Assembly (NCBI RefSeq): GCF_026738875.1
Contig: NZ_JAPQFJ010000021.1
Span: 1 to 55,351, forward strand
Source of the DNA: Clostridium brassicae
GTDB taxonomy: Bacteria > Bacillota > Clostridia > Clostridiales > Clostridiaceae
Reading direction: 5' to 3'
DNA: 55,351 nucleotides
The position numbers and the translations under genes were made by a program. The notes under the pieces were generated by a model. The model worked only from the letters and a program-made list of their open reading frames with translations, did not search any database and had not been told where the DNA came from. This document shows, piece after piece, positions 3,482 through 50,695 of this stretch; positions within the stretch are counted from its first letter, which is position 1, and every line of letters starts with the position of its first letter.

Positions 3482-4867
3482 TTAAATATCCTTTATATTC
3501 AATTCATTTATCTTTCTATATAATGTATTTCTAGGTATTTTTAAAAGTTTTGCAGCCTGACTTTTATTATAATTACACTGGCTTAGCGCACTTTTTATTG
3601 TCTCTGCTTCAACAGCATTTATGACTTCATTCAGTCCCATACCGCTTAAATTTATATTCTGTTTTATTGAATCTTGTAAAAAAAATTCAGGTAAATCATT
3701 TATCCCTACATTTACATCATCTGCGCTAACACATATTTTATTTATTACATTTTTTAATTCTCTAATATTTCCAGGCCACAAATACTCATTAAGAATATCC
3801 ATTATATTATCAGGAATTTTTCTTAATATCCCCAATTCTTTATGGAAATTAGATAAAAACTCCTCTACTAAAAATTTCATATCTTCTTTTCTCTCTCTTA
3901 ATGGTGGTACTTCTATACTTAAAACATTAATTCTGTAGTATAAGTCCTCCCTGAATTTTCCATCAATAACCATTTTTTCTAAGTTTCTATTTGTAGCACT
4001 TATTACCCTTATATCTAATGGAATAACTTTTTTTCCACCAATTCTTATAATCTCTTTTTCCTGCAAAACCCTTAAAAGTTTTGCTTGCATATGGTATGGC
4101 ATTTCTCCAATCTCATCTAAAAAAATAGTGCCTCCATTTGCTAGCTCAAATTTACCTATACTTCCGCCTTTTTTCGTTCCAGTAAATGAACCTTCTTCAT
4201 ATCCAAAAAACTCTGATTCTAATAGACTTTCTGGAATTGACGAACAATCTATCCTAACAAAAGGCATATTATGTCTCTCACTCTCTGCATGTATTGCATG
4301 AGCAAAAAGTTCCTTTCCTACCCCACTTTCACCTTTAATAAGCACATCAAATTTTACTTTAGCAAATTTTTTCACATCATTTTTGCACTTAATAATGCTG
4401 CTAGATTTTCCAATTATATTATCCAAACTATATGTAGTCTTATTAAATTTAGCAATTTCATTTTTATATAACTTCAATTCTTTATTGAGTAATTCATATT
4501 TATCCAATATATCTTTCATATTCTGAATTTCTTCAAATAAAATCATACCTAATCCACCTACTAAATTACCTCTATCATCAATTATGGGTATTCTATGACA
4601 TATCGCTTCCTTTCCATTAGGGAACTTATGAGGAGTGGCTATATCTGCTCTTTTATTTTTCAAAGATTTCATAAATTTAGATGTAGGATTTATATCTGTC
4701 ACTATTCTACCAATCATATTTTCAATAGGTATTTGAAGAAAATCAGAAAAAGATTTGTTTATATATATCATTTTTCCATCTTTGTCTAAAAAGTCAATTG
4801 CAATAGGTATATTGTCAAAAGCACTATGACAAAACTCTAAAAATTCCTTTGTGTTCAAATTAATCAT
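3482..4867 (-). CDS. PAS-containing sigma-54-dependent transcriptional activator
   Basis: A 461-residue enhancer-binding protein. It has an N-terminal PAS sensor (about residues 10-120), a central AAA+ domain (about 145-375) and a C-terminal Fis-type helix-turn-helix ending in AAKLLKIPRNTLYRKINEL. The AAA+ part contains the Walker A GESGVGKE, the sigma-54 contact loop in the form GSFTGT, and the Walker B region GGTIFLDEIGEMP. It therefore should hydrolyse ATP to open promoters held by RNA polymerase-sigma-54. It lacks a receiver domain, so activation is probably by a small molecule bound at the PAS domain. Two candidate sigma-54 promoters at 7240-7255 and 13058-13073 precede the neighbouring operons and are its likely targets. 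A separate promoter region with a 10-bp inverted repeat (4884-4913) lies upstream. Confidence 0.92.
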   Translation of the reverse strand: MINLNTKEFLEFCHSAFDNIPIAIDFLDKDGKMIYINKSFSDFLQIPIENMIGRIVTDINPTSKFMKSLKNKRADIATPHKFPNGKEAICHRIPIIDDRGNLVGGLGMILFEEIQNMKDILDKYELLNKELKLYKNEIAKFNKTTYSLDNIIGKSSSIIKCKNDVKKFAKVKFDVLIKGESGVGKELFAHAIHAESERHNMPFVRIDCSSIPESLLESEFFGYEEGSFTGTKKGGSIGKFELANGGTIFLDEIGEMPYHMQAKLLRVLQEKEIIRIGGKKVIPLDIRVISATNRNLEKMVIDGKFREDLYYRINVLSIEVPPLRERKEDMKFLVEEFLSNFHKELGILRKIPDNIMDILNEYLWPGNIRELKNVINKICVSADDVNVGINDLPEFFLQDSIKQNINLSGMGLNEVINAVEAETIKSALSQCNYNKSQAAKLLKIPRNTLYRKINELNIKDI

Positions 4868-4883
4868 TACTATATCCCCCCTA

Positions 4884-4913
4884 CAACTTATATATTAATT
4901 ATAATATAAGTTG
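4884..4913. promoter_or_regulatory. Inverted repeat over the activator gene promoter
   Basis: CAACTTATAT at 4884-4893 is repeated inverted at 4904-4913. On the minus strand the centre holds a TATAAT sequence that could be a -10 box for the activator gene, so a protein bound here would cover the promoter. Autoregulation is an inference. Confidence 0.45.
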
Positions 4914-4949
4914 CATAACTAGTATAATTAATTTATTGAATTTATATGT

Positions 4950-4983
4950 AAAAAAGGAGGTATCTGGGTTACCTCCTCTTTTA
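4950..4983 (-). terminator. Terminator of the MFS-hydrolase operon
   Basis: GGAGGTA (4956-4962) pairs with TACCTCC (4970-4976) and is followed on the minus strand by six T residues. It separates the hydrolase gene from the activator gene, so the two are transcribed separately. Confidence 0.8.
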
Positions 4984-5000
4984 AGTTAACTTATTAATAA

Positions 5001-5816
5001 TTATTTTAATATCTCAATTACAGGTATAGCAGATTCTGTCTCATATGCTATTAAAAATTCAGCTAAAGCCAAGTTGTATGCTGGTGCATTATCCATTTTT
5101 GATAAATGGGATGCATCTGGTATAATTTGCATTTTTGACCCAATAATATTTTCGTTTAGATATTGCGCATAAACAATTGGGGTTACAGGATCAAATTGTC
5201 CTACAGATATGAATGTTGGAATATTCATATCTTCATGATATTCTCTATAATCAGCCTTTAAAGTAGAATACGTAGCCTGTCTATATGGTTTTACTCTATT
5301 TAATTGGAACATTTGTATAGCTTCCTTTAAAATACTTTCTTCAACATTTATCTTGCAAGCTGCTTTAGCAATCAACTCACCTAATTCTTCCATGGGCATT
5401 CTATCGATTCTCTCCAATCTTTCATCAAGTCCAGTTGTACACATAGGTTCTGGATAATACCCCGCAGCATCACTTAGAGTCATAGTGAGCATACGGTTTT
5501 GATTTTTTATTGCAATCTCTTGACAAATTAGTCCTCCCATGGATAAACCAACAAAATGAGCTTTATCTATCCCTAGATAATCTAATAATGCTAATACATC
5601 TTTTGCAAACAATTCCATAGTAATGAATTCATCTCCATCGCCACTACGATAATGTCCGCGTAAATCCATAACAATAGTTCTAAAACTTTTGCTAAAAACA
5701 TCAATTTGGTATTTCCACGATTCTGCATTTTCACCTAATCCATGAATAAATACCAAAGCAGGTCCTTGACCCTTATCTTCATAATACAAATCGATTCCAT
5801 TTATTTTTGCTATCAT
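5001..5816 (-). CDS. Alpha/beta-fold hydrolase (enol-lactonase/esterase-like)
   Basis: A 271-residue cytosolic alpha/beta hydrolase. The oxyanion-hole segment FIHGLGENAESW, the nucleophile elbow GLSMGG and a late DASHLSKMD that provides the catalytic His are visible, with the acid likely in the VGQFDPVTP loop. The overall look is that of 3-oxoadipate enol-lactone hydrolases and related carboxylesterases; the substrate is unknown. It lies 34 bases downstream of the MFS transporter gene on the same strand and ends before a strong terminator, so the two form an operon behind the candidate sigma-54 promoter at 7240-7255. The ATG follows TAGGAGG. A second hydrolase of the same superfamily lies in the adjacent operon. 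Confidence 0.88.
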   Translation of the reverse strand: MIAKINGIDLYYEDKGQGPALVFIHGLGENAESWKYQIDVFSKSFRTIVMDLRGHYRSGDGDEFITMELFAKDVLALLDYLGIDKAHFVGLSMGGLICQEIAIKNQNRMLTMTLSDAAGYYPEPMCTTGLDERLERIDRMPMEELGELIAKAACKINVEESILKEAIQMFQLNRVKPYRQATYSTLKADYREYHEDMNIPTFISVGQFDPVTPIVYAQYLNENIIGSKMQIIPDASHLSKMDNAPAYNLALAEFLIAYETESAIPVIEILK

Positions 5817-5850
5817 AAAAAAACCTCCTAATAATTTTTATAAAATATTT

Positions 5851-7128
5851 TTATTTACCACCATTCACAATCATATTGCTACTTTTATCTGTAGCCGTGG
5901 ATTTGATAAGAAAAATAGTGAAAAGCGTTGCTAAAACTAATCCTCCTATACATATTGACCATAAAATTGTGTATGATTTTGTAACATCATAAATATATCC
6001 TCCAAAATAAATTGCTACAGCAGATCCAATTGAGGCACTAGTAGCCATTACTCCATTAAGTGTTCCAAGACTTTTTCTTCCAAACAAGTCTGCTGTTAAA
6101 GATGAAAATAATCCAAATGCTCCCATGTACGATAGTCCCATTATGAACACAAATACGTATGCCATTACTGGCGTGTTAGCATTCATAAGAACTATAGTTC
6201 CAATTATTTGTAATATTAATGAAATACATAGTGCCTTCTTTCTATCAATAAAATCTGAGATTGTTGGCCAAATTAACATAGAAAACATAGATAAAAACAT
6301 ATTCATTGCCAAAGCATCAGTAGCCTGTGTCTCTGTTAATCCATTATTAATAAGATGTGGCACTTGATGTATTTGTTGAGCAAGACCATTTCCTCCAAAT
6401 AAGAAGTATGCAAGAATTAATGCCCATGCTTTTGGAGAACAAAAGATTTTTTTATATGTCCATTCCTCATCATCAATACTACAGCTATTTGTATTTTGAT
6501 TTACTTTTATTTTGATTTCTCCATCCGGCAATAACCCTATATCTTCTGGTTTATTTTTCATTAATAATAGTGATGGTATAATTACTAAAATCCATGAAGT
6601 TATAGCCATTATTTTAAATGTTCCTCTCCATCCTATTGATTCTAGCCATCCCTTTGCAAACATTGTAAATATAGCTGCTCCTAAAGGTGATGCTACTAAT
6701 GTTATCGCCATAGCTCTTCCTCTTTTCTTAACAAACCATCTACCTACAGCTGTTGGGCCTGGTACCATTCCCATACAACTGCCTGCAACACCTAATAACA
6801 ATCCATAGCATAAGTAAAATTGAGTAGGAGTTTTAATTACTGTCATTAAATAATAAGCCAGTCCTGTTAATACACCACCTATTGCTAAAATATTTTTGAC
6901 TCCAACTTTATCCATTATTTTACCAACAAATAAAACCACAATAGCATATACAAACATATTTGCAGAAAAGGCCCCTGCCACTTGTGTTCTTGACCATCCT
7001 AAGTCATTTAACATAGAAAGTTGAATTACACCATAAGCTCCTTTTGTCCCATAAGTTATACCTACTGACAAAAATGCTACTAAAACTACAATCCAACCAT
7101 AAAAAAATTTTGATTGTTTTTTCTCCAT
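5851..7128 (-). CDS. MFS transporter, oxalate/formate antiporter-like (monocarboxylate type)
   Basis: A 425-residue membrane protein with about 12 hydrophobic segments. The opening FFYGWIVVLVAFLSVGITYG, the GKIMDKVGVKN loop and the WFVKKRGRAMA segment between membrane helices 4 and 5 are typical of the OxlT/MCT-like branch of the major facilitator superfamily, which moves carboxylates. A hydrophilic loop of roughly 40 residues separates the two six-helix halves. It is the first gene of a two-gene operon with an alpha/beta hydrolase, behind a long (about 100-base) leader from the candidate sigma-54 promoter. Beside a CoA-transferase operon, the simplest reading is import of an organic acid or ester; the substrate is not known. 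Confidence 0.88.
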   Translation of the reverse strand: MEKKQSKFFYGWIVVLVAFLSVGITYGTKGAYGVIQLSMLNDLGWSRTQVAGAFSANMFVYAIVVLFVGKIMDKVGVKNILAIGGVLTGLAYYLMTVIKTPTQFYLCYGLLLGVAGSCMGMVPGPTAVGRWFVKKRGRAMAITLVASPLGAAIFTMFAKGWLESIGWRGTFKIMAITSWILVIIPSLLLMKNKPEDIGLLPDGEIKIKVNQNTNSCSIDDEEWTYKKIFCSPKAWALILAYFLFGGNGLAQQIHQVPHLINNGLTETQATDALAMNMFLSMFSMLIWPTISDFIDRKKALCISLILQIIGTIVLMNANTPVMAYVFVFIMGLSYMGAFGLFSSLTADLFGRKSLGTLNGVMATSASIGSAVAIYFGGYIYDVTKSYTILWSICIGGLVLATLFTIFLIKSTATDKSSNMIVNGGK

Positions 7129-7239
7129 ATAACTATCCCTCCATTAAATATTGTTAGTTAAACCTTTTCTTCGTCTCAATTAAACTTATACTTATTCCCC
7201 CTTCTATCTTTATAACACCCACTTCATATATTGTTTTAT

Positions 7240-7255
7240 AGCAATACATATGCCA
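7240..7255 (-). promoter_or_regulatory. Candidate sigma-54 (-24/-12) promoter for the MFS-hydrolase operon
   Basis: On the minus strand the sequence reads TGGCATATGTATTGCT. It has the GG and GC elements exactly ten bases apart and matches the TGGCAC-N5-TTGCW consensus at all but one defined position. It lies 112 bases upstream of the MFS start codon and beside a gene for a sigma-54 activator. Confidence 0.85.
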
Positions 7256-7324
7256 CTTTATGTGCTAAATACAAATTTTTTAAATTGACGGATTCTATCT
7301 CCCTATAAATGGCTTCTCATAGCA

Positions 7325-7362
7325 AAAAAAATTTATCTTTTCTAACAAAAGATAAATTTTTT
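7325..7362 (-). terminator. Terminator after the NHL-repeat operon
   Basis: A 16-bp stem of AAAAAATTTATCTTTT and its complement around a 5-base loop. It ends in a run of T residues on either strand and lies 150 bases past the NHL gene, separating the two operons of the island. Confidence 0.7.
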
Positions 7363-7394
7363 CTGTAAATAATAAATTTAATTTATAATATTAT

Positions 7395-7411
7395 TGTAAC
7401 AAAATGTTACA
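7395..7411. promoter_or_regulatory. Candidate upstream activator (enhancer) site
   Basis: TGTAACAAAATGTTACA is a perfect 6-5-6 inverted repeat centred about 150 bases upstream of the -24 element of the MFS promoter. That is a typical distance for a sigma-54 activator site. A related 17-base element lies at 13167-13183 ahead of the second candidate sigma-54 promoter. Confidence 0.6.
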
Positions 7412-7511
7412 TGTGTAATATTCTATTTGCAACATAACTATATAGAACTTAATAATTTCTAATATCTATATAGTTAATCATATTATTTAAATTCTATTTG
7501 TCTTAAGAATA

Positions 7512-9371
7512 TCAAGGAACAAACTTTGTAACTTTGTTAAGTAGTCCATCTGCTACATAGATTTCTCCATTTGCTCCACATGCAATACCTTGAGGTGAAA
7601 AGAAATTCCCACTACTGCTACTAAAATTCCCCCATTTTTCAATAAAAATTCCATTTGAAGTAAATTTTTGCACCCTATTATTAGAACTGTCAGTAACATA
7701 AACATTATCGCTTTCATCAATAGTAATCCCTATGGGTAAAAATAAATCTCCGTCACCAATACCCCAATTTTCTAAAGGATCAGTCACAGGGACCCCTCCT
7801 TTAGTTCCCCACTTTGTAATAAAATTACCGTTCTTATCGAATTTTTGAATACGGCTATTAGATCTATCTACTACATAGATATTATCTTTAGAGTCACTAG
7901 CAAGAAAAAATGGTTGTCTAAACTGTCCATTTTCCATTCCTTCTCTACCCCAACTCTTTACAAACTGTCCTAAAGAATTAAATTTTACAATTCTATTACC
8001 TCCTGTATCCGCAACATATATGGAACCATCACTAGTAGTACATACTCCTACAGGTAAGGTTAAATGACCATACCCAAAGTTCATTAACCAAGTTCCATTC
8101 TTTGAGAATACTTGAATTCTAGAATTACCTGTATCTGCAATCACTATATTATCATATTTTTTATTGTAGCAAATCTGTTTAGGTGTAGTAAATTGCCAAT
8201 AGTATATACCATAAGCTCCTGGTCCTCCATTACCGCTATTTCCACCCCATTTACCTAATAATTTTCCAGAGCTATCAAATTTTTTTATGCGGTGATTTAA
8301 ACTATCTGTAACATAAACATTACCTGAAGGGTCTACAGCTACTCCCGTACTTCCTGAGAATACTTTATCACCTGTCCTTAACTTTCCTATATTCAAATCT
8401 GGTGAAGCATAAGTTGAATATCCATTAAATCTAATTAATTGGCTATTTCCTGTATCTGAAACAATAAATTTCCCATTTCCTATAGGTAAAACTTGACAAG
8501 GGAATACTGGTTCTAAATTAGCAATACCTAAACTTGTAGAATATTTATAGACATGATTACTATTAAATTTTTTAATCTTGTGATTAAAAGTATCTGCTAT
8601 ATATACATCGCCATTAGAGTCTATATTCACTCCTCTAGGATATAAAAACTTATTAGAGCTATCCCCTGGTTCTCCCGTTCCTAATTGCTCAATATAATTT
8701 CCTTTAACATCTAAAACTTGAACTCTGTTATTGAAAGTATCGCATATATAAACTTTGTCGCCTAGTGGATCTTGCTTTATAGCAATCCCTTGAGGTAATC
8801 TAAACTTACCATTACCTGTACCTCTTCCTCCATAATGATATAAAAATTTTCCATTTTCATCAAAAACCTGAATGCGATCATGAAATTCATCACAAACATG
8901 ATATCTATTTTGACTATCTATGCCTATTTCCCTAGGTAAGCCAAATTGACTTGTCCCATCGCCAAAAGAACCCCAAGCGGTTATAAAATTCCAATTTGAA
9001 TCAAACTTTTGAATACGATAATTTGCTGTATCTGCAACTAGTATATTACCTTTATTATCAATAGCTACACCAAAAGGAGTATCAAATTGTCCATTACCAG
9101 AACCTCGCGCACCAAATTTCTTAAGAACATTTCCATTTTCATCAATCTTTACAATTCTGTTATTACTCATATCTGCAACATATATATTTCCTTTAGCATC
9201 TTTAGACATTGCCACCGGAGAATTAAAAAATACTTCTGAAAATTTTTCATTTGCTATGCCCCAAACATCTTCAACATTCAATTGAGCAGTTCTAGCACTA
9301 GCAGGCAAATTGAATAATGCGAAAATTATGAATGTTATAATTAGATTTCTGAATAATTTAGTTTTTTTCAT
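7512..9371 (-). CDS. Secreted NHL-repeat beta-propeller protein
   Basis: A 619-residue protein with an N-terminal signal peptide (hydrophobic core about residues 9-22, cleavage probably after ASA) and then about a dozen NHL repeats running to the end. Repeat units read like IYVADTGGNRIVKF followed by GxFxxPxGI. No LPxTG anchor, membrane segment or lipobox is seen, so release outside the cell is likely. NHL propellers bind proteins, RNA or sugars, and some are lyases or esterases; no catalytic signature can be assigned here. It is the last gene of the CoA-transferase operon, 47 bases after a hydrolase gene, with its own GGAGG site. A secreted propeller co-transcribed with cytosolic acyl-CoA enzymes is unusual and hints that the substrate is met or captured outside the cell. 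Confidence 0.88.
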   Translation of the reverse strand: MKKTKLFRNLIITFIIFALFNLPASARTAQLNVEDVWGIANEKFSEVFFNSPVAMSKDAKGNIYVADMSNNRIVKIDENGNVLKKFGARGSGNGQFDTPFGVAIDNKGNILVADTANYRIQKFDSNWNFITAWGSFGDGTSQFGLPREIGIDSQNRYHVCDEFHDRIQVFDENGKFLYHYGGRGTGNGKFRLPQGIAIKQDPLGDKVYICDTFNNRVQVLDVKGNYIEQLGTGEPGDSSNKFLYPRGVNIDSNGDVYIADTFNHKIKKFNSNHVYKYSTSLGIANLEPVFPCQVLPIGNGKFIVSDTGNSQLIRFNGYSTYASPDLNIGKLRTGDKVFSGSTGVAVDPSGNVYVTDSLNHRIKKFDSSGKLLGKWGGNSGNGGPGAYGIYYWQFTTPKQICYNKKYDNIVIADTGNSRIQVFSKNGTWLMNFGYGHLTLPVGVCTTSDGSIYVADTGGNRIVKFNSLGQFVKSWGREGMENGQFRQPFFLASDSKDNIYVVDRSNSRIQKFDKNGNFITKWGTKGGVPVTDPLENWGIGDGDLFLPIGITIDESDNVYVTDSSNNRVQKFTSNGIFIEKWGNFSSSSGNFFSPQGIACGANGEIYVADGLLNKVTKFVP

Positions 9372-9418
9372 AATCTTATTAACCTCCTTTTGTCTAAATG
9401 TTCTTTGAATATAATTTC

Positions 9419-10294
9419 TTAATCTTCACTTATACATCTAACCAATACTTCTTGAGCATCCACCATAGGTGAATGTCCACACTCTTTCACTATTACAAGT
9501 TCTGCATTATCTCCTATACTTTCTTTCATCTCTTTTGCCTCATCTACAGTAATTAATAAATCACTATCTCCTTGCAGTATTATCGTAGGTACATTTATTC
9601 TATCAACCTCACCTGTTCCCATAGACAACCCATTGTAATAATTAGATATATTAAATTTTGTCAATCCATAGTATACATCCATTAAGTTTCTTTGAAGCAA
9701 ACTTTCTTCTAATTGCGCTTCAAAAACCTCAGGCTTTGGCTTATTTTTATTGTATATTGCAGTATCCCATATATTTCTGTAGTACTCTTTATCATTACGC
9801 TCTAATGCCTCTAATAGTTCAATTTTAGTCTTGTCTTCCTGAATCTCTTTTCTAGATTTTAATAAAATTTTCTTACCTTTATCATCTACTGCATAAGAGT
9901 GATATCCTGAAATACCCGCTGAGTCTATTAAGAATAATCTGTTTACCATATATTCATAATTTGAACAAAATAACATGCTTACAGCTCCACCTGTAGACCA
10001 TCCTAATAAATCGAATTTTTTTAATTTTAATTGATCAACAAATAATTTTAAATCTCCAGCAAAATCTCTTAAAGTATCTATTGGTCTATTATAAGTCGAC
10101 CTTCCAAACCCTCTCATATCAATAGCATAAGCAGTATATTCTTCTGGTAGCTCTTGTATAAGCTCATCATAAAACTTGGAGCTGGCTAAATTTCCATGAA
10201 CTAAAACTATAACTTTTTCACCTCCTATATATTGTCTATAACTATACATTTCATTATTAGGTAATTCTATTTGGTTTAATTGAATATTCTTCAT
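9419..10294 (-). CDS. Alpha/beta-fold hydrolase
   Basis: A 291-residue cytosolic alpha/beta hydrolase. It shows VLVHGNLASSKFY (oxyanion hole), the nucleophile elbow GWSTGG with the Ser, an acid in the LQGDSDLLI loop, and ECGHSPM with the catalytic His. I place the start at the ATG at 10294 because GGAGAGGG stands just upstream; an earlier in-frame ATG at 10339 has no ribosome-binding site. It lies between the acyl-CoA dehydrogenase-like gene and the NHL gene on the same strand and is part of the same operon. It could hydrolyse an ester, lactone or CoA thioester of the pathway. Confidence 0.87.
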   Translation of the reverse strand: MKNIQLNQIELPNNEMYSYRQYIGGEKVIVLVHGNLASSKFYDELIQELPEEYTAYAIDMRGFGRSTYNRPIDTLRDFAGDLKLFVDQLKLKKFDLLGWSTGGAVSMLFCSNYEYMVNRLFLIDSAGISGYHSYAVDDKGKKILLKSRKEIQEDKTKIELLEALERNDKEYYRNIWDTAIYNKNKPKPEVFEAQLEESLLQRNLMDVYYGLTKFNISNYYNGLSMGTGEVDRINVPTIILQGDSDLLITVDEAKEMKESIGDNAELVIVKECGHSPMVDAQEVLVRCISED

Positions 10295-10386
10295 CTTAAT
10301 CCCTCTCCTATTATCTATTTTAAAATAAATTAATCTCATTTCTCTTTATCTCAACTATACACTCTAAGTGCATTTTCATAGATTTT

Positions 10387-11520
10387 TCACTTTAAATTCT
10401 TCAGTACATTAAGTCCAATTATCATATTTAAAACTTCTACCGTTCCAACACCTATATCTATTAATCTTGCATCCCTTGCAAATCTTTCTACATCATTATT
10501 TCTTATATAACCGTGTCCCCCCATAATTTGTATAGCTTCATAACATATATCATTTACTGCTTTAGCTGTAGCTACCTTAGCAACAGATGCTTCTAAAGAA
10601 TAATCTTCTCCTCTATCTCTTACTTCACAAGCTTTGCGAAAAAGTGCCTTTACCCCTGCTAATTTTATATACATATTAGCTATTTTTTCTTGAATAGAGA
10701 AAAGTGCTGCAATAGGTTTACCAAAAGCACTACGATTATTTGAAAATTTAACAGCTTACTCTAAAGCCACTTCTCCAATTCCTATCCCAATGGCTGACAT
10801 TCCAAGTCTACCTCCTACCAGTCCATCTAAAACAATTTCAAATCCTTTGTCTTCTTTTCCTAGTAAATTGTCTTCAGAAACTATACAATCTTTTAATACT
10901 AAATTAGTAGTTGCAGAACTTCTAAACCCCATTTTTTCAGCATAATAGGTTACATCTAATCCATAAGTTTCTTTGTCAACTATAAATAAACTTATTCCCT
11001 TTGCACCTTTATTAGGACTTGTCTTACACATAACAAAATATAAATCTGCTATACCTCCATTCGTCACAAAATACTTTGTTCCATTAATCTTCCATCCATT
11101 CTCAACCTTTTCTGCGACTGTTTTAATACCTGCAGCATCTGATCCAGCTGTTGCCTCACTTATTGAGTAAGCAGCTATCTTCTTTCCCTCTACTAAATCT
11201 TTCAGATATTTTTTCTTTTGTGATTCGGTACCATATTTTAAGAGAACATCTGTAGCCATCCAGTGCACTACATAAAGTAAACTTATTCCTGCACTTCCTT
11301 TAGCTATTTCCTTTAATATATAAAAAGCACTTTTATAATCCATATCATATCCACCATATTCTAAGGGATACTGAGCTCTAAAGAATCCTAATTTTCTCAT
11401 AGGATCAAATAACTCTTTTGGGCAGCGATTACTCTCATCTAATTCTTTGGCTATAGGCTTTATATTTTCTTTAGTAAAATTCTTAGCTTTTAAAATTAAT
11501 TCTTCACTACTAATATTCAT
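10387..11520 (-). pseudogene. Acyl-CoA dehydrogenase family gene interrupted by an in-frame stop
   Basis: The frame encodes an acyl-CoA dehydrogenase of normal length (377 sense codons) but codon 255 is TAA (10756-10758). The reading frame is unchanged on both sides: GIGEVALE, stop, AVKFSNNRSAFGKPIAALF. One base change from a sense codon such as AAA would explain it. The FAD and substrate motifs ISEATAGSDAAGI and YFVTNGGIADLYF are present. Both positions known to carry the catalytic Glu lack it: the usual YEGT near the C terminus is GVGT, and the isovaleryl-CoA-type position in helix G is Gly (GLVGGRLGM). If read through, the product might not be a normal dehydrogenase. It sits 37 bases after the CoA-transferase B gene. 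A sequencing error at the stop is possible. Confidence 0.85.
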
Positions 11521-11557
11521 TTACACTTCTCATCTCCATTTTTCATTTATATGTCTT

Positions 11558-12217
11558 TTATAATTCCATATCTTTCAAATCTTCACCTACAATAAAATCT
11601 GCCTCTGTTATAGCTTTTATATCCTCCAAAGATAATCCCGGATAAATTTCTCTTAAAATTAACATATCTTCTCCAACATCAAAAACTGCTTTCTCTGTAA
11701 TTATTGTTTTTACACACCTCTTCCCTGTTAAAGGTAATTCACATTTTTTCTTTATTTTAGAATTTCCATTCTTATCCGTATGTTGTAATGTAGCTATTAT
11801 TTTCTTTGTTCCATAAGTTAACTCCATAGCTCCACCTATTCCTGGCCACCATAATCCATCCCTCTTTACGGCCCAATTTGCTATATTACCAAATTGATCA
11901 ACTTCTAAAGCTCCTAATATAGTCACATCAATATATCCATTTCTCATAGCTCCTAAAGATGTAGCAAGTGACATACACGCTGCCCCTGGTAACAATGTAA
12001 CTGGCTCTGAACCTGCATTTGAAACGTCAGAATCCGCATCATTACAATTTGGTTTCCCACCAAAACCAAAAGCCCCATTTTCTGTATGCATAATTAGCTT
12101 TATACCTTTTGGCAAATAGTTGACTGCCTGTGTAGGCATACCAAAGCCTAAATTTGCAACTTCTCCATCATTTAATTCCTTAGCTGCTCTTCTGGCAATA
12201 ATCTCTCTAACCTCCAT
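11558..12217 (-). CDS. 3-oxoacid CoA-transferase family, subunit B
   Basis: A 219-residue beta subunit of a family I CoA-transferase (AtoA/ScoB/CtfB type). The catalytic Glu46 is in the MHTENGAFGFG motif, which is the residue that forms the glutamyl-CoA intermediate. GAACMSLATSLGAMRNGYIDVTILGALEVD and GIGGAMEL follow in the usual order. It should move CoA from a donor such as acetyl-CoA or succinyl-CoA to a short-chain carboxylate. The length is standard. The gene begins 53 bases after the A subunit behind AAAGGAGG and precedes the interrupted dehydrogenase gene. The exact acid used is unknown; acetoacetate, butyrate and beta-ketoadipate enzymes all look like this. Confidence 0.92.
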   Translation of the reverse strand: MEVREIIARRAAKELNDGEVANLGFGMPTQAVNYLPKGIKLIMHTENGAFGFGGKPNCNDADSDVSNAGSEPVTLLPGAACMSLATSLGAMRNGYIDVTILGALEVDQFGNIANWAVKRDGLWWPGIGGAMELTYGTKKIIATLQHTDKNGNSKIKKKCELPLTGKRCVKTIITEKAVFDVGEDMLILREIYPGLSLEDIKAITEADFIVGEDLKDMEL

Positions 12218-12270
12218 TGTTATTCCTCCTTTTATTATCTTGAATAAGCTTAAAATTTCTTACAAACAAT

Positions 12271-13020
12271 TTATTCTTCCTTATTTAATTTACCTTTTTT
12301 AATCCATACTTCACGATATATATCATTCTGCTCTTTTAATGTATAGCCTTGAACTACCGCATCAACAAAAACTCCTGGACATCCAACTCTTTCTGGGTCT
12401 ATAGTTCCAACAGGTACAATTTCATTTACCTCTGCAATAGTGTATTTTCCAGCCATAGCTATATCTGCATTATCGTTTAAGCTGGTCCCTCTAAATTCTA
12501 GGTTCCCAAGTTCATCTGCCCTCCAAGCCTTAACTATTGATACCTCTGATGTTAGCGCTGGCTCAATAAAACAATCTAAGCCATTTACATTTATTACTTT
12601 TTTAGGCTCATCTAAATTTTCAAATAATCCTGGCTCATCTAAAATACCTACTCCTACTGGTACTAGTACTCCACCTAGCCCCATAGCACCAGCGCGTACT
12701 TTTTCCATCCAAGTTCCCATAGGAAAAAATTCTTTTACGCATAAATCTCCAGCTAGATATTCTTCTGTAGACTCAACTGAAGTGCCTACATGACTTGAAA
12801 TAAGTTCTTTTACTTGCTTGTTCTTGTAAAGCATTGATTTACCAAATCCAGACATTCCTGGAGTTACTGCAATAAGAATTAAATCTTTCGTCCCTTTTTG
12901 AACAATCTTTTCAATAGACTTAATTGGAGAACCTACATCAATAAATCCTCCAATCATTAATCTTGTTCCATCTTTTATTACATTAAGAGCTTTATCAATA
13001 GAAATCACCTTAGATATCAT
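12271..13020 (-). CDS. 3-oxoacid CoA-transferase family, subunit A
   Basis: A 249-residue alpha subunit of the same family I CoA-transferase. It begins with the expected MISKVISIDKALNVIKDGTRLMIGGF and has the AGAMGLGGVLVPVG and EPALTSEVSIVKAWRADELGNLEFRGT segments. It is some 30 residues longer than typical clostridial CtfA, the excess being near the C terminus. It is the first gene of a five-gene operon (both subunits, dehydrogenase-like, hydrolase, NHL protein) and starts 38 bases downstream of the candidate sigma-54 -12 element, behind AAAGGAGG. Together with subunit B it would activate a carboxylate to its CoA thioester. Confidence 0.92.
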   Translation of the reverse strand: MISKVISIDKALNVIKDGTRLMIGGFIDVGSPIKSIEKIVQKGTKDLILIAVTPGMSGFGKSMLYKNKQVKELISSHVGTSVESTEEYLAGDLCVKEFFPMGTWMEKVRAGAMGLGGVLVPVGVGILDEPGLFENLDEPKKVINVNGLDCFIEPALTSEVSIVKAWRADELGNLEFRGTSLNDNADIAMAGKYTIAEVNEIVPVGTIDPERVGCPGVFVDAVVQGYTLKEQNDIYREVWIKKGKLNKEE

Positions 13021-13057
13021 TACATTACCTCCTTTGTTTTATTTGCTATAAATTTAC

Positions 13058-13073
13058 AGCAATATTCATACCA
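13058..13073 (-). promoter_or_regulatory. Candidate sigma-54 (-24/-12) promoter for the CoA-transferase operon
   Basis: The minus strand reads TGGTATGAATATTGCT, with GG and GC ten bases apart and a perfect TTGCT -12 element. It lies about 40 bases upstream of the CoA-transferase A start codon. Confidence 0.78.
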
Positions 13074-13166
13074 AAAAAATATAGATTGATATAGTAGCGT
13101 TTATTATGGAATTTATAATTATTTATGTATATTTGTCCCATTTAAGATACAGCACCAATCAAAAAC

Positions 13167-13183
13167 TGTTCAAAAAAGTTACA
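13167..13183. promoter_or_regulatory. Second candidate activator site
   Basis: TGTTCAAAAAAGTTACA matches the palindrome at 7395-7411 at 13 of 17 positions, with TGT and GTTACA ends kept. It is centred about 100 bases upstream of the second candidate -24 element. The left half-site is imperfect. Confidence 0.45.
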
Positions 13184-22116: not shown

Positions 22117-23394
22117 GTGGATATTGTTAAAAGATATGGAAATTTAATTAAAAAATCTATGTATAATCCCCAAACTGCTTTAAACTTAATAAAAACTGGT
22201 CTATCTCTTGAAAAACTAAGGGTTTCTAAATTTAGAGATAAACATTTACCTCCTTCTCTTCAATATCTCAATAAAATATGTATTCAATATATATTAGAAC
22301 CACTCCGAAATCCTAATAATTGTGGCTTAGTCAATCTTTTTGCTCCAACTGAAATACTTCATGCTATGGGTATTTATCCTTTATTTATTGAAGCATTTTC
22401 TTCATTTTTATCTGGTTTTACATGCGAAGATTATTTTATAGATTATGCCTCAAATTGTGGATTTTCAGAAACTCTGTGCTCATATCATAAGGCTTTCTTA
22501 GGAGCTATAGATTCAGGACTTATATCTAAACCGTCTTTTGCAGTTACTTCTTCTATGATCTGTGATGCTAATATAAATACCTTTAGACATTGCTCACACA
22601 ACTATAATATACCTTTTTACATTATAGATATACCTTATGAATATAACAAAGATACTGAATCATATGTTGCAAATCAAATAAAAGAAATGGTATGTATGAT
22701 AGAAGACGCCATGAGCAAAAGTTTAGATGTAAACAAGTTGAAAGAAATTTTAATATTAGAAAACTCTACTTTATATTATAGGAAATTATTCTATAATAAA
22801 CTTAAAACAAAGTATTTTCCAAATACACTTACTTTAGAAATGTATAAACTTTTCACTTCTCATGTTGCCCTTGGTAGAAAAGAAACTTATAAATTTTACA
22901 AAATGCAATCAGAAGATATCCAATACTTTAATAGAACATCATGTAAAAAAATTTTATGGGTACATCTTCTGCCTTTTTATCATAAAACATTAAAAGATTA
23001 CTTTAACTTAAGTCGAGAGTATCAGCTTTTAACTTGTGATTTTAGTTTTGATTATATGGAGGAATTAGACTATAATAATCCATTTAATGCCTTAGCAAAA
23101 AAAATGCTTTTAAATCAATACAATGGTAGCTTTGAAAAAAAAGCTAAAAACATACTAAAAACTGCTAAAGTACTTGATGCAGATGCTGTAATAAACTTCT
23201 GTCATTGGGGGTGTAAGCAATCTACTGGTGGAACTATGATCCTAAAAGATTTATTAAAAGAAAATAATATTCCATTCTTATCTATTGATGGAGATGGAGT
23301 GGACAGACGTAATACTCAAGACGGTCAGATAAAAACTAGGGTAGAAGCTTTTCTAGAAATAATAGACACAACCCAAAGAAAGAAGGTTATATAA
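22117..23394 (+). CDS. 2-hydroxyacyl-CoA dehydratase/double-cubane cluster protein family (HgdB-like)
   Basis: A 425-residue member of the 2-hydroxyacyl-CoA dehydratase D-component superfamily (HgdB/BcrC/YjiM). Candidate iron-sulfur ligands are Cys69 (NNCG), Cys114 and Cys121 in NCGFSETLCSYHK, and the FCHWGCKQSTGG segment near residue 360. NCGFSETLC resembles double-cubane cluster proteins rather than classical 2-hydroxyglutaryl-CoA dehydratase, but I cannot settle the subfamily. Such proteins receive low-potential electrons from an ATP-driven activator, which here is the fused next gene. It starts with GTG behind AAGGAAG. The downstream gene's ATG directly follows its stop codon. No acyl-CoA pathway genes flank it, arguing for a stand-alone reductase with small substrate. 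Confidence 0.78.
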   Translation: MDIVKRYGNLIKKSMYNPQTALNLIKTGLSLEKLRVSKFRDKHLPPSLQYLNKICIQYILEPLRNPNNCGLVNLFAPTEILHAMGIYPLFIEAFSSFLSGFTCEDYFIDYASNCGFSETLCSYHKAFLGAIDSGLISKPSFAVTSSMICDANINTFRHCSHNYNIPFYIIDIPYEYNKDTESYVANQIKEMVCMIEDAMSKSLDVNKLKEILILENSTLYYRKLFYNKLKTKYFPNTLTLEMYKLFTSHVALGRKETYKFYKMQSEDIQYFNRTSCKKILWVHLLPFYHKTLKDYFNLSREYQLLTCDFSFDYMEELDYNNPFNALAKKMLLNQYNGSFEKKAKNILKTAKVLDADAVINFCHWGCKQSTGGTMILKDLLKENNIPFLSIDGDGVDRRNTQDGQIKTRVEAFLEIIDTTQRKKVI

Positions 23395-25068
23395 ATGATA
23401 GGTTATGTATGTAAATATACTCCTATAGAGATTTTAGAGAGCTTTGGGGAAGAAGTAATAAAAATAGACCCTTACATAACAAATTTTCATAATTCCGATA
23501 CATTAATGCACCCAAATATGTGTTTTTATTGTAAGTCTGTTTTAGAGTTTTGCTTAAAAAAACAAATAAAAGAATTAGTGCTTGTAAATTGCTGTGATAG
23601 TATAAGACGTTTATATGATGTACTAAAGTTTCAAAATAACTTTAACTTTATCCACATAATTGACATTCCTAAGAAGAATTCTTGTTGCTCCATAGAATTA
23701 TTTAAAAAAGAAATATTTAAATTAATTAACCACTACGAGCATTACAGTAAAAAAATATTTAATGAAAAAGAATTTAAAAAAATTGTAAATAATAAAAACA
23801 ATGATATAAATAATAGAACTAGCACTTCTCTTAAGCTTGCTATTATGGGAGCTAGATGTAAAAATTCTTTAATAGAATATATTGAAAAACTCAGCAATGC
23901 ACAAGTCTATAATTTTACATGTACCTCTAACTATGGGCTTTACAATAACATCTATAATGATGTAGATATTCTAACTCAATATGCTAAAAATATATTAAAT
24001 TACTTCCCTTGTCTTAGAATGGCCGACATAGATAAACGTAATTCTATTTTAAAAGAAAATTTTTCAGGTATAATTTATCACACAATTAAATTTTGCGATT
24101 TTTACTCCTATGAATATTCAAATTTAAAAAATAACATAGATGTTCCTATGATTAAAATAGAAACAGATTATAGTGAACAAAGTGAAGGTCAAATTAGGAC
24201 GAGAATAGAAGCTTTTATAGAATCCTTAAATAAGTTTTCCACATCTGTTGAAAAAAATTATTCATCACCTGTTAATAAAGTGCACAAAAATAAATTTGCT
24301 CTTGGAATTGATAGTGGTTCAACTTCTACTAATGCTGTAATTATAGATGAAAATAAGTCAATAGTTTCTTTTTCTATTGTAAAAACAAGTTCTAAAAGCT
24401 CCATAGGCGTAGAAAAAGCCCTTAATGAAGTTCTAAAAAAATCAGAACTATGTATAGAAGATTTATGCTATATAGTATCTACAGGATATGGAAGAGTGAG
24501 TATACCTTTTGCAGATCAAACAGTAACAGAAATAACTTGTCATGCTAAAGGAGCTAACTTTTTAAATTCAAATATTAGAACTATAATAGACATTGGTGGA
24601 CAAGATAGCAAAGCTATTAAAATAGATAGTGAGGGTAATGTTAAAGATTTTGCTATGAATGACAAATGTGCTGCTGGCACAGGTAGATTTTTAGAAATGA
24701 TGTCTAGAACTCTTGAAGTATCTATAGATACAATGGGCTCTCTTTCATTAAAACACAAAGAAAATATAGATATAACAAGTATGTGCAGTGTTTTTGCAGA
24801 ATCTGAAGTAATCTCTCTCATAGCTGAAAACAAAGAAAAAAGTGATATAATATATGGTATTTGTAATTCTATTGCAAATAGGACCCTTTCTTTAATAGAT
24901 AGGGTTAAACGTGAAGAAGGTTTTATGATGACTGGTGGAGTAGCTAAAAATATAGGAGTTGTTCAGTGCTTAGAAAAAAAACTCAATCATAAAATATTTA
25001 TTCCTAAAGAACCTGAAATCATTGGTGCCTTAGGTGCAGCACTTATAGCATTAGAAAAATCCTCTTAG
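23395..25068 (+). CDS. Fusion of an HgdB-like domain with a BadF/HgdC-type activator ATPase
   Basis: A 557-residue two-part protein. The N-terminal 285 residues resemble a shortened dehydratase-family domain: VCKYTPIEILESFG, then HPNMCFYCKS with Cys43 and Cys46, and a final EGQIRTRIEAFIESL like the end of the preceding gene product. From about residue 300 it is a complete ASKHA activator ATPase: LGIDSGSTSTNAVI, DIGGQDSKAIK, NDKCAAGTGRF and CSVFAESEV, the last two supplying one Cys each for a [4Fe-4S] cluster bridged between two subunits. It closes with MMTGGVAKN and GALGAALIALE. It should use ATP hydrolysis to inject an electron into the HgdB-like partner. The gene is translationally adjacent to 22117-23394. 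Confidence 0.85.
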   Translation: MIGYVCKYTPIEILESFGEEVIKIDPYITNFHNSDTLMHPNMCFYCKSVLEFCLKKQIKELVLVNCCDSIRRLYDVLKFQNNFNFIHIIDIPKKNSCCSIELFKKEIFKLINHYEHYSKKIFNEKEFKKIVNNKNNDINNRTSTSLKLAIMGARCKNSLIEYIEKLSNAQVYNFTCTSNYGLYNNIYNDVDILTQYAKNILNYFPCLRMADIDKRNSILKENFSGIIYHTIKFCDFYSYEYSNLKNNIDVPMIKIETDYSEQSEGQIRTRIEAFIESLNKFSTSVEKNYSSPVNKVHKNKFALGIDSGSTSTNAVIIDENKSIVSFSIVKTSSKSSIGVEKALNEVLKKSELCIEDLCYIVSTGYGRVSIPFADQTVTEITCHAKGANFLNSNIRTIIDIGGQDSKAIKIDSEGNVKDFAMNDKCAAGTGRFLEMMSRTLEVSIDTMGSLSLKHKENIDITSMCSVFAESEVISLIAENKEKSDIIYGICNSIANRTLSLIDRVKREEGFMMTGGVAKNIGVVQCLEKKLNHKIFIPKEPEIIGALGAALIALEKSS

Positions 25069-42054: not shown

Positions 42055-42987
42055 CTAATGTGCTCCAATGTTACAACATATTCCCAAATCTTCTACTATA
42101 GTTTTAAATTTAACCATTACATCATTACTTGGAGTATTAATTTTTTTTCTCATACCATACTCTTTTCCTATACATTCATACTTATTTACTCCATATTTAT
42201 GATATGGTAAGAGATGTACCTCATTTACTTTATTTAAACCCTTAGCAAATTTAGCTATGTCTTCTATACTTTTCTTATCTGCATTAAATTCTGGGATGAC
42301 AGGAACTCTAATAATAGTTTCTATACCGAATTGTATAATTTTTTTTGCATTTTCTAATATAATCTCATTATTTACTCCAATATATTCAAAATGCTTATTT
42401 GTATCCAATGTTTTAATATCTAAAAGTACTAAATCAACCCAAGGTAATATATCTTTTATCACTTTTTCACTACAATAAGCTGTAGTTTCTATAGTAGTAT
42501 GCCATCCCATACTTTTACAAGCCTTTAATAATTCCAAAGTGAATTTAGATTGCATTAATGGTTCTCCTCCAGAAAGAGTAACCCCTCCTTTTGAACGCCT
42601 AAACTGTATTGATTCTTTTTTTAACTCATCTATAACCTGTTGCACTGTCATTTCTTCCCCAGACATAGTAAGAGCTCCTGAGTAACAATTTTCTATACAT
42701 TCACCACAATTGACACATTTATTCCTATCTATTCTATAATTAAACTTAAAATCAATAGCTCCCATTTTGCAGACTTCTTCACATTGGTGACAATCAATAC
42801 AGTTCTTAATATTAAACATTACTTGTCTATGCTTATTTTGCGATTCTGGATTACTACACCAACGACAAGATAAAGGGCAGCCTTTTAAAAACACTATAGT
42901 TCTCAAACCCGGTCCATCATTTACAGAAAATCTTTGTATGTTAAAAACTATCCCTTTTTCTTCATAATTAACTTCATTTTTTAGCAT
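42055..42987 (-). CDS. Glycyl-radical enzyme activating protein (diol dehydratase activase)
   Basis: A 310-residue radical SAM enzyme. CPLSCRWC (about residues 37-44) is the CxxxCxxC site for the SAM-cleaving [4Fe-4S] cluster, and GGVTLSGGEPLMQ is the SAM-binding GGE motif. Between them lie two ferredoxin-like clusters, CIDCHQCEEVCK and CVNCGECIENCY, which mark activases of the glycerol/propanediol dehydratase and related classes rather than the short pyruvate formate-lyase activase. It makes the glycyl radical on the upstream enzyme. It follows that gene by 83 bases, with a hairpin in the gap. Confidence 0.93.
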   Translation of the reverse strand: MLKNEVNYEEKGIVFNIQRFSVNDGPGLRTIVFLKGCPLSCRWCSNPESQNKHRQVMFNIKNCIDCHQCEEVCKMGAIDFKFNYRIDRNKCVNCGECIENCYSGALTMSGEEMTVQQVIDELKKESIQFRRSKGGVTLSGGEPLMQSKFTLELLKACKSMGWHTTIETTAYCSEKVIKDILPWVDLVLLDIKTLDTNKHFEYIGVNNEIILENAKKIIQFGIETIIRVPVIPEFNADKKSIEDIAKFAKGLNKVNEVHLLPYHKYGVNKYECIGKEYGMRKKINTPSNDVMVKFKTIVEDLGICCNIGAH

Positions 42988-43020
42988 AGCCTTATCTTCC
43001 CCTTTTAAAATTAATTAAAT

Positions 43021-43051
43021 TTTAAGGCTTGAAAAATACTCAAGCCTTAAA
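43021..43051 (-). promoter_or_regulatory. Intercistronic hairpin in the dehydratase operon
   Basis: TTTAAGGCTTGA pairs perfectly with TCAAGCCTTAAA. On the minus strand it is followed by a broken T-rich tract, so it may stop only part of the transcripts or protect the 3' end of the enzyme mRNA, giving less activase than enzyme. Confidence 0.55.
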
Positions 43052-43070
43052 TCCAATTTAAAATATATTT

Positions 43071-45482: not shown

Positions 45483-45588
45483 CTTTTATCCCCCTAATTT
45501 CTTAATATATTTTTGTATAAAGCTTCTTTTAAAAGAATATTGTTTTTTACATTTTTTAAAACTTTCTTTAGTAATACTAATACTATTA

Positions 45589-45602
45589 TTTAAACGTTTT
45601 CA
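45589..45602. promoter_or_regulatory. cre-like CcpA site upstream of the dehydratase gene
   Basis: Read on the minus strand, TGAAAACGTTTAAA agrees with TGWAANCGNTNWCA at 13 of 14 positions. It is 107 bases before the dehydratase start codon. Confidence 0.65.
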
Positions 45603-45630
45603 AATAATTTAAACTATTCTGTACATTGAA

Positions 45631-45673
45631 AATAGCTTGATGGTATTTATATATATAATACAATCAAGCTATT
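45631..45673 (-). terminator. Terminator of the response regulator gene
   Basis: AATAGCTTGAT (45631-45641) pairs with ATCAAGCTATT (45663-45673), with an inner GGTATT/AATAC stem. Confidence 0.65.
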
Positions 45674-45831
45674 AATTTCTTTAATATTTATTTATCTACT
45701 TTCTGCATTTTTTTGCTCAAATAAAATTTAAAACCTATCCATTTTTTCGTTTCTATGACATTTTTTTATTCTTAACTATACTTTTATGTTATTTAGAAAA
45801 ACCATCTAATTAGAAATTTAAAATATATTAT

Positions 45832-46551: not shown

Positions 46552-46654
46552 ATTAACTCCTCCCTCATAAATTTAATCATACACAAACTCACCTTAATAT
46601 TTAATCATCCATTTACATAAGTATATATTTATTGTCTATTAAATAATATATTCT

Positions 46655-47872: not shown

Positions 47873-48336
47873 AAAAAATTGCCTCCTATATAACACATTA
47901 GCATATTTTAGTAATTTTAAACTCTATAATAACATTATCTTCAAAGGATCAATTGTGTCAAGATACTTGTTTTCAAAATACATAAAAAGCATAAGATACT
48001 TTTCAATATTCCTATGCTTTCTGTATTAAAATATTTGTTATTTTTATACTACTATTCTATAATATATATCTAAAATTAATTACTCCTCTACTCCAGTATC
48101 TTTAATATTTGATTTTGTCCGTTTTACATTAATTATATTTTTCAAAATCGTTATATTTATATTAGTATTGCTTAATTTAATCTCTTCAGTTTCACAATCT
48201 TTATTTTTCTCAGATTTAATACTATCACTTTCTTTGCCTTATTCATCAATTATATATTGAAACAATTTCTAATACATCCTTTAATTCATCACTATACATA
48301 ATATACTCTACTAAAAAATATGTTGCTATATTAATT
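47873..48336. other. Intergenic region with a possible gene remnant
   Basis: Between about 48080 and 48310 the minus strand has two short open frames in different registers, IATYFLVEYIMYSDELKDVLE and then a Lys/Glu/Asn-rich frame ending NIKDTGVEE, separated by stops. They read like the pieces of a decayed short gene. No ribosome site fits. The rest is AT-rich. Confidence 0.3.
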
Positions 48337-50677: not shown

Positions 50678-50695
50678 ATGAGAAAGGTGAAAATT

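What the first reader, a model, noticed from the sequence alone, without database searches (positions are those of the whole stretch)
3482..13183. A sigma-54-controlled catabolic island for an unknown organic acid or ester
Two operons around a PAS-type sigma-54 activator each have a sequence fitting the -24/-12 promoter with exact GG-N10-GC spacing (7240-7255 and 13058-13073), and each has a related TGT-N11-ACA element 100-150 bp upstream. Together they encode an OxlT-like MFS carrier, two alpha/beta hydrolases, a CoA-transferase, an acyl-CoA dehydrogenase-like protein and a secreted NHL propeller. I know of no described pathway with this set.
Basis: partly seen in the sequence, partly recalled or inferred. 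Interest (0 to 1): 0.75.

Follow-up and report, generated by a model that had tools for sequence, protein, structure and literature searches.

The report
Sigma-54 operons for short-chain acid esters
Two neighbouring bacterial operons, apparently switched on by a specialised sigma-54 activator, look made to take up and break down a small organic acid or its ester (possibly 3-hydroxybutyrate oligomers); the control circuit is a known clostridial kind, the gene set is a new combination, and one of its enzyme genes is interrupted in this genome.

Summary
The sigma-54 reading holds. Both -24/-12 sites are where stated, rpoN is present, and all 18 loci found with a relative of the activator have such a site before a neighbouring gene. 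In 21 related loci there are 37 strong sites against 0 for the reversed pattern. The 7395-7411 element is the window's best motif match; 13167-13183 is weak and rests mainly on position.

The circuit is not new in kind: by gene content it resembles published clostridial activator groups AhcR, CrbR and XcgR (PMC6615313).

New points: hydrolase 2 (9419-10294) passes the model for intracellular scl-PHA depolymerase. CtfA-CtfB-ACD is a unit in 5 of 225 order genomes, each with a sigma-54 site. Its dehydrogenase lacks the canonical catalytic glutamate in 5 of 5 copies. In the window it is cut by an in-frame TAA and the activator's GAFTGA motif reads GSFTGT, so this copy may be decaying.

Best explanation: uptake, ester hydrolysis and CoA activation of a short-chain acid, 3-hydroxybutyrate oligomers favoured, not shown. 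New variant of a known kind.

The parts
13167..13183 (.). candidate activator-binding element (TGT-N11-ACA) of operon 1
   Evidence: exact match; rank 5 of 55,335 with a matrix made without the window, 1.15 expected by chance; supported mainly by its place
13058..13073 (-). sigma-54 -24/-12 promoter of operon 1
   Evidence: sites before the same gene in 4 of 4 other triad loci
12271..13020 (-). CoA-transferase subunit A (3-oxoacid/acetate type)
   Evidence: TIGR02429 146 bits, cut-off 128.5; PDB relatives
11558..12217 (-). CoA-transferase subunit B (3-oxoacid type)
   Evidence: TIGR02428 249.3 bits, cut-off 243.55; best PDB match butyrate-acetoacetate CoA-transferase B 8k9h, ENG motif aligned
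10756..11520 (-). acyl-CoA-dehydrogenase-like gene, N-terminal piece, ends at an in-frame TAA
   Evidence: Pfam Acyl-CoA_dh_N and _M; TAA
10387..10674 (-). acyl-CoA-dehydrogenase-like gene, C-terminal piece, same frame, no ribosome site seen; IGVG in place of IYEG
   Evidence: Pfam Acyl-CoA_dh_1
9419..10294 (-). hydrolase 2, intracellular scl-PHA depolymerase family
   Evidence: NF050089 367.7 bits, cut-off 300; Ser/Asp/His aligned with PHB depolymerase 8ynv; start chosen after AGGAGAGGG
7512..9371 (-). NHL propeller protein with hydrophobic N-terminus (probably secreted, not tested)
   Evidence: NHL PF01436; two-propeller-like model, pLDDT 69
7395..7411 (.). activator-binding element (TGTAACAAAATGTTACA) of operon 2
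   Evidence: rank 1 of 55,335; the only perfect TGTAAC-N5-GTTACA in the 4.1 Mb genome
7323..7365 (.). A/T-rich hairpin between the element and the promoter, possibly the end of operon 1
   Evidence: 19-nt arms, 95% complementary
7240..7255 (-). sigma-54 -24/-12 promoter of operon 2
5851..7128 (-). MFS monocarboxylate-type carrier
   Evidence: MFS_1 160.9 bits; L-lactate carrier model below cut-off; relatives at 62% and 67% beside the activator in G138 and G149
5001..5816 (-). hydrolase 1, esterase-like alpha/beta hydrolase
   Evidence: Abhydrolase_1; best PDB match Est1 6eb3
3482..4867 (-). sigma-54 activator: borderline PAS, AAA+, Fis-type HTH; loop motif GSFTGT

Best explanation
A one-component sigma-54 regulon for a short-chain carboxylic acid or its ester. 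The activator senses a small ligand through its N-terminal PAS-like domain (inferred), binds TGT-N11-ACA elements about 100-150 bases upstream (inferred from conservation) and starts two operons at -24/-12 promoters (sites shown, transcription not). Operon 2 makes a monocarboxylate-type carrier and an esterase-like hydrolase. Operon 1 makes a 3-oxoacid-type CoA-transferase, an acyl-CoA-dehydrogenase-like protein (interrupted in this genome), a hydrolase of the intracellular PHA depolymerase family and a propeller protein that is probably secreted. The acid or oligoester is taken up, hydrolysed to monomers and loaded with CoA from an acyl-CoA donor; it then enters the cell's crotonyl/acetoacetyl/butyryl-CoA reactions (all inferred from family membership). 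Favoured substrate: 3-hydroxybutyrate oligomers or a like short hydroxyalkanoate ester (about 0.35 for this substrate alone; about 0.85 for sigma-54 control). The confidence below is for the whole outline with the substrate left as 'short-chain acid or ester'.
For: Sigma-54 sites at all 18 activator loci, 37 against 0 in a reversed-pattern control; elements upstream of 20 of 31 promoters, 1.7 in shuffles; rpoN present. CoA-transferase genes beside the activator in 14 of 18 loci, hbd with thl or bcd-etf in the other 4 (names partly by eye, representatives scanned). Hydrolase 2 over the family cut-off and with the catalytic triad, also over the cut-off in sister locus L036; it co-occurs with the activator in 8 genomes out of 14 and 15 among 225, p 1.1e-7, kinship ignored. 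MaoC, AtoE and SSS carriers in sister loci are short-chain-acid genes.
Against: No transcription, binding or enzyme data. No PHA synthase of the class III model in the genome (weak control: 1 of 14 control genomes rang, none over the cut-off), so a granule role is unlikely and oligomers would have to come from outside. Hydrolase 2 relatives also stand alone, and in G004 a tandem pair lies beside glycerol genes, so glycerides or other esters are possible; 6 of 14 genomes with it lack the activator at the threshold. The propeller protein has no close relative in the other 224 genomes. The dehydrogenase is interrupted here.
Confidence: 0.55

Rival explanations
1. A control branch of butyrate or butanol metabolism: the CoA-transferase re-uses acetate, butyrate or acetoacetate and the activator answers to the acid or acyl-CoA pool, as proposed for AhcR, CrbR and XcgR; the hydrolases are side activities.
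For: Gene content of those groups in PMC6615313 Table 1; 4 of 18 activator loci sit beside hbd with thl or bcd-etf, among them the host's own closest paralog L040; CoA-transferase B's best PDB match is butyrate-acetoacetate CoA-transferase.
Against: Carriers and hydrolases recur beside the activator (hydrolase-1-like in 11 of 18 loci, window included), which points to uptake of something from outside. The window has no thl, hbd or etf in these operons. Orthology to the published groups was not testable: their supplement was not readable.
Confidence: 0.2
2. An electron sink: the CoA-transferase loads a 2-enoate (acrylate, crotonate or the like) and the dehydrogenase-like protein reduces it, as in acrylate or caffeate reduction.
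For: The dehydrogenase pieces and the intact relative L062 score best against acryloyl-CoA reductase AcrC in NCBIfam for the N-terminal piece and L062 (226.8 and 353.5 bits); caffeyl-CoA reductase is among PDB matches.
Against: Both scores are far below the AcrC cut-off of 640; no Etf genes in the window's operons or right beside the triad in L062 and L080; the canonical Glu is missing in 5 of 5 copies; it would not explain two hydrolases.
Confidence: 0.15
3. In this genome the island is decaying: dehydrogenase cut by a stop, activator loop motif altered, so the pathway no longer works as a whole. Not exclusive of the other readings.
For: In-frame TAA, downstream piece without a visible ribosome site; 4 of 4 other triad copies are open. 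GSFTGT in the window against GAFTGA, GSFTGA or GAFTGG in the 21 others compared.
Against: The other frames are open; both promoters and the 7395 palindrome are intact. PMC6615313 says loop variants (its examples do not include GSFTGT) still allow activation. A sequencing error cannot be excluded: one assembly only.
Confidence: 0.35

Closest known systems
Clostridial sigma-54 activator regulons AhcR, CrbR and XcgR (PMC6615313; abstract, passages and Results parts 1-2 of 3 read)
   Same: PAS-type one-component activators are the common kind there; promoter consensus TTGGCATN5TTGCT; TGT-N10-12-ACA elements for these groups, mostly 100-250 bp upstream; target genes include cotX/cotY (which I take to be CoA-transferases), hbd, thl, maoC, bcd-etf and carriers.
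   Different: The listed operons show no alpha/beta hydrolase, PHA-depolymerase-family gene or NHL protein, and the paper's main text has no 'hydroxybutyr' or 'hydrolase'. Orthology by sequence could not be tested.
   Same: CtfA 72%, CtfB 72%, dehydrogenase 58% to the N-terminal piece, MFS 62%, activator 62%, sigma-54 site before CtfA.
   Different: Dehydrogenase open; one extra butyryl-CoA:acetate-type CoA-transferase; no hydrolase 2 or NHL gene in the stretch read; one run of genes with one sigma-54 site found.
Intracellular PHB depolymerase of solved structures 8ynv and 8ynw
   Same: Hydrolase 2 aligns over 283 residues, E 1.3e-76, with Ser (GWS), Asp (GDSD/GDRD) and His (CGHSP) in place.
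   Different: No PHA synthase of the class III model found in the genome; activity unknown.
Butyryl-CoA dehydrogenase (5ol2_C, and Bcd of L067, L069, L078)
   Same: Same fold family; the intact relative L062 matches 5ol2_C with E 1e-88.
   Different: Catalytic Glu is Val and the preceding Tyr is Gly in 5 of 5 triad copies; 3 of 3 Bcd in the same alignment have YE.

Membership tests
Sigma-54-dependent promoter/activator system | -24/-12 promoter with GG-N10-GC | tested here: met
Sigma-54-dependent promoter/activator system | rpoN gene in the genome | tested here: met
   PF04963 192.7 bits, one place
Sigma-54-dependent promoter/activator system | activator with sigma-54 AAA+ domain and HTH | tested here: met
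   PF00158 233 bits, PF02954 46.8 bits
Sigma-54-dependent promoter/activator system | GAFTGA loop motif | tested here: inconclusive
   GSFTGT; GAFTGA, GSFTGA or GAFTGG in 21 others; variants can work (PMC6615313)
Sigma-54-dependent promoter/activator system | rpoN- and activator-dependent transcription | not testable with these tools
   needs expression data
AhcR, CrbR or XcgR regulon (PMC6615313) | orthology of the activator to a published group | not testable with these tools
   sequences are in a supplement that could not be read; resemblance is by gene content and motif type only
PrdR (NF041552) | curated cut-off 795 bits | tested here: not met
   467.6 bits
Intracellular scl-PHA depolymerase (NF050089) | curated cut-off 300 bits | tested here: met
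   367.7 bits
Intracellular scl-PHA depolymerase (NF050089) | Ser-Asp-His triad with GWSxG box | tested here: met
   alignment to 8ynv/8ynw; the roles of the residues are recalled, Ser backed by Ala in 8ynw
Intracellular scl-PHA depolymerase (NF050089) | hydrolysis of PHA or oligomers | not testable with these tools
   needs an assay
3-oxoacid CoA-transferase (TIGR02428, TIGR02429) | curated cut-offs of both subunits | tested here: met
   249.3 (243.55) and 146 (128.5) bits
Acyl-CoA dehydrogenase, canonical | catalytic Glu in the YEGT stretch, or a Glu in helix G as in isovaleryl-CoA dehydrogenase | tested here: not met
   Val at the first place in 5 of 5 triad copies; GLxGGR in the helix G stretch, no Glu (placing of the helix G residue is recalled)
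Acyl-CoA dehydrogenase, canonical | one open reading frame in the window | tested here: not met
   in-frame TAA
Acryloyl-CoA reductase AcrC (NF042972) | curated cut-off 640 bits | tested here: not met
   pieces 226.8 and 61.4; intact L062 353.5
Oxalate/formate antiporter (TIGR00890, TIGR04259) | curated cut-offs 374.85 and 335 bits | tested here: not met
   109.3 and 82.5 bits
3-oxoadipate enol-lactonase PcaD (TIGR02427) | curated cut-off 255.85 bits | tested here: not met
   134.4 bits for hydrolase 1

The most novel reading that the evidence does not exclude
The CtfA-CtfB-ACD triad is an unrecognised sigma-54-controlled CoA module. Its flavoprotein has lost the canonical catalytic glutamate in every copy seen (5 of 5) while keeping clade-wide changes of its own, such as an Asp and an HWMA stretch ahead of the FAD motif. 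It would carry out a CoA-ester reaction other than ordinary alpha,beta-dehydrogenation, on a hydroxy or otherwise polar short-chain acyl-CoA released from oligoesters.
Probability: 0.25. Interest if true: 0.6.

Novelty: new variant of a known kind. Interest (0 to 1): 0.4.

Why it matters
If right, it extends the clostridial sigma-54 network from butyrate/alcohol synthesis and Stickland reactions to ester or hydroxyalkanoate scavenging in anaerobes, names a testable link between an activator group and intracellular PHA-depolymerase-like hydrolases, and points to an acyl-CoA-dehydrogenase clade with a rebuilt active site.

Tried and rejected
Considered and set aside: PrdR, oxalate/formate antiporter, PcaD and AcrC identities (below curated cut-offs); 3-sulfinopropionyl-CoA desulfinase for the dehydrogenase (135.5 of 600 bits for the N-terminal piece, 251 for L062; the structure paper is not held); TGT-N11-ACA alone as proof; a sigma-70 promoter and terminator scan (66 promoters found, 58.3 in shuffles; 4 terminators, 3.0 in shuffles), not informative; further targets of the activator in the genome (7395 is the only perfect palindrome; with one mismatch 6 places in all against 11 for the reversed control, so the rest is noise).

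The propeller protein was modelled without an alignment (pLDDT 69) and resembles NHL domains such as Thin and TRIM2, which gives no function. The genome-contig scan with hydrolase 2 found one weak locus only (25% identity), so no relative could be named; the relatives used are unnamed G genomes. I looked for sigma-54 control of PHB genes in Bacillus thuringiensis and did not find it (passages of PMC4908106 and PMC4428206). PMC6510779 and PMC2941729 were seen in passages only. A search for CrbR gave 3 papers, of which I opened only PMC6615313. No paper with this gene set came up in the listings (open-licence library only; top rows seen).

In the element test I used 31 promoters from the list. 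I left out the two window sites and three sites judged not to be operon heads (L037 3385, L039 17146, L061 1276); the triad loci L078-L080 came later and are not in it. Near-identical loci (L036, L037, L039) are not independent. The tree is a quick one with 22 rows. The co-occurrence p-values ignore kinship.
Full report
What is there. The nine frames of 3482-13020 all run on the minus strand. Read in the direction of transcription, operon 1 is CoA-transferase A (12271-13020), CoA-transferase B (11558-12217), an acyl-CoA-dehydrogenase-like gene in two pieces (10756-11520 and 10387-10674), hydrolase 2 (9419-10294) and an NHL propeller protein (7512-9371). Operon 2 is an MFS carrier (5851-7128) and hydrolase 1 (5001-5816). 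The activator (3482-4867) follows. Gaps between genes inside the operons are 34-92 bases; between the operons the gap is 383 (with the hydrolase 2 start at 10294). A 95% complementary A/T-rich hairpin lies at 7323-7365.

Sigma-54 control. The two -24/-12 sites are as reported. The genome has one rpoN-type gene and 67 near-consensus sites against 5 for the reversed pattern. I searched the order for the activator at E 1e-145 or better (300 genomes asked for, 225 searched): 15 genomes, 18 loci, the host's own two included. I read the flanks of all 18. Each has a sigma-54 site of at least 10 of 12 consensus letters before a neighbouring gene; in three (L040, L064, L065) one such site overlaps the mechanical start of a frame that is probably called too long. 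Over the 21 loci with activator or triad relatives (387 kb; L039 with a broken activator frame included) there are 37 sites of at least 11 letters, against 0 for the reversed pattern. TGT-N11-ACA stands 45-260 bases upstream of 20 of 31 such promoters; shuffles give 1.7 on average and 5 at most. A matrix from those elements, made without the window, puts 7395-7411 first in the window and 13167-13183 fifth. So the promoter claim and the 7395 element are firm; the 13167 element is supported by place rather than by sequence. The published clostridial consensus, element type and spacing are the same (PMC6615313, Results parts 1-2 of 3).

What the activator group goes with. Of the 18 loci, 14 have a CoA-transferase gene beside the activator (in L061 it seems broken) and 4 (L040, L067, L069, L070) have hbd with thl or bcd-etf; many of these names were read by eye from the frames, and representatives were scanned. 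Carriers vary: MFS (window, L061, L062), SSS, Liv-type ABC or AtoE. A hydrolase-1-like gene stands in 11 of 18 (window included; the others only 24-27% identical to it) and a hydrolase-2 relative in 5 of 18 (window, L036, L037, L038, L064), with one further weak match in L072. The closest locus is L062 (G138): CtfA 72%, CtfB 72%, an open dehydrogenase frame 58% identical to the N-terminal piece, an extra CoA-transferase, MFS 62% and activator 62%. In a quick tree the window activator groups with those of L060, L061 and L062 (SH-aLRT 99). The genome itself holds 17 strong matches to the activator, itself included; the nearest paralog (56%) is beside hbd and thl.

The triad. Relatives of CoA-transferase A at E 1e-70 or better occur in 5 of 225 genomes. 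In all five the order CtfA-CtfB-ACD is kept with a sigma-54 site before CtfA. In two (L078, L079) the triad follows hbd-thl-maoC-bcd-etf and an activator about 40% identical to this one. The dehydrogenase-like proteins of all five read IGVG(T/A/S) where the three Bcd proteins in the same alignment read IYEGT, so the canonical base Glu is Val; the helix G stretch reads GLxGGR, without the Glu that takes over in isovaleryl-CoA dehydrogenase (solved Bcd aligned). Passages of two papers say that this Glu is kept in most of the family, with isovaleryl-, long-chain and benzylmalonyl-CoA dehydrogenase as exceptions (PMC11659651; PMC5798300). A clade-wide Asp replaces Gly or Ser ahead of the FAD motif (column 102). 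What reaction this allows is not known; a base elsewhere is possible.

Interruption and drift in this copy. The window's dehydrogenase has one in-frame TAA, and I see no ribosome site before the downstream piece; the other four copies are open. The activator's loop motif is GSFTGT, which none of the 21 other activators compared has. Either may be harmless or an assembly error, but together they warn that this strain's pathway may be broken.

The hydrolases and the propeller. Hydrolase 2 passes the NCBIfam model for intracellular scl-PHA depolymerase (367.7 bits, cut-off 300) and matches PDB 8ynv over 283 residues with the three triad residues aligned; 8ynw has Ala at the same Ser. At E 1e-45 or better it occurs in 14 of 225 genomes; 8 of these are among the 15 with the activator, 6 are not (p 1.1e-7, kinship ignored). 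In 5 of the 8 the two genes lie within 8 kb. Against a strict PHB role: no class III PHA synthase match in the genome (weak control), and a tandem pair in G004 sits beside glycerol genes. Hydrolase 1 is esterase-like without a family assignment. The propeller protein has no relative at E 1e-80 in the other 224 genomes and looks like a binding scaffold.

Reading. The parts fit a regulon that imports a short-chain acid or small ester, hydrolyses it and passes it to CoA. 3-hydroxybutyrate oligomers fit hydrolase 2, the 3-oxoacid-type CoA-transferase and the MaoC, hbd and thl genes of sister loci; fermentation of 3-hydroxybutyrate to acetate and butyrate is known in Ilyobacter polytropus (PMC3035301, passages). 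This substrate is an inference with about one chance in three. Nothing here shows transcription, binding or enzyme activity.

Verdict. A real, well-supported sigma-54 island; a known kind of circuit; a new combination of genes; one interrupted enzyme; and one clade with an unusual active site that deserves an assay.

Noticed in passing
window 50377-50393 (-) and 50561-50577 (+): Two more sigma-54 sites of 11 of 12 letters face apart between a sodium:dicarboxylate symporter (48938-50179) and a gene with a serine dehydratase alpha domain (50678-51982). Sigma-54 control of cysteine catabolism is described in clostridia (PMC6615313); whether this gene is such an enzyme was not tested.
   Followed up: partly
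window 22117-25068 (+): A gene of the 2-hydroxyglutaryl-CoA dehydratase D-component family followed by a fusion of the same family with a BcrAD/BadFG ATPase; it could be a dehydratase or another ATP-driven iron-sulfur reductase.
   Followed up: partly
window 42055-47896 (-): A glycyl radical enzyme (43071-45482), a radical SAM protein that may be its activase, an AraC-type response regulator and a PocR-domain histidine kinase; the substrate is open.
   Followed up: partly
L033 2085-10423 (G004): Two tandem hydrolase-2 relatives (41% and 40%) directly beside glycerol genes with the GlpP-type antiterminator, which hints at glyceride or other ester substrates for part of this family.
   Followed up: partly
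L061 11862-13009 (G149): The CoA-transferase beside the activator appears as two separate frames (106 and 253 aa), so it seems broken or misassembled; together with the window's dehydrogenase it is a second damaged gene in such loci.
   Followed up: no
L036 7352-8380 and relatives in L037, L038, L064-L066, L068, L071, L072: A KAS III-like protein (L036 copy over the cut-off of NF005308; the others named by eye) stands between the activator and a butyryl-CoA:acetate-type CoA-transferase; its role in such operons is unclear.
   Followed up: partly
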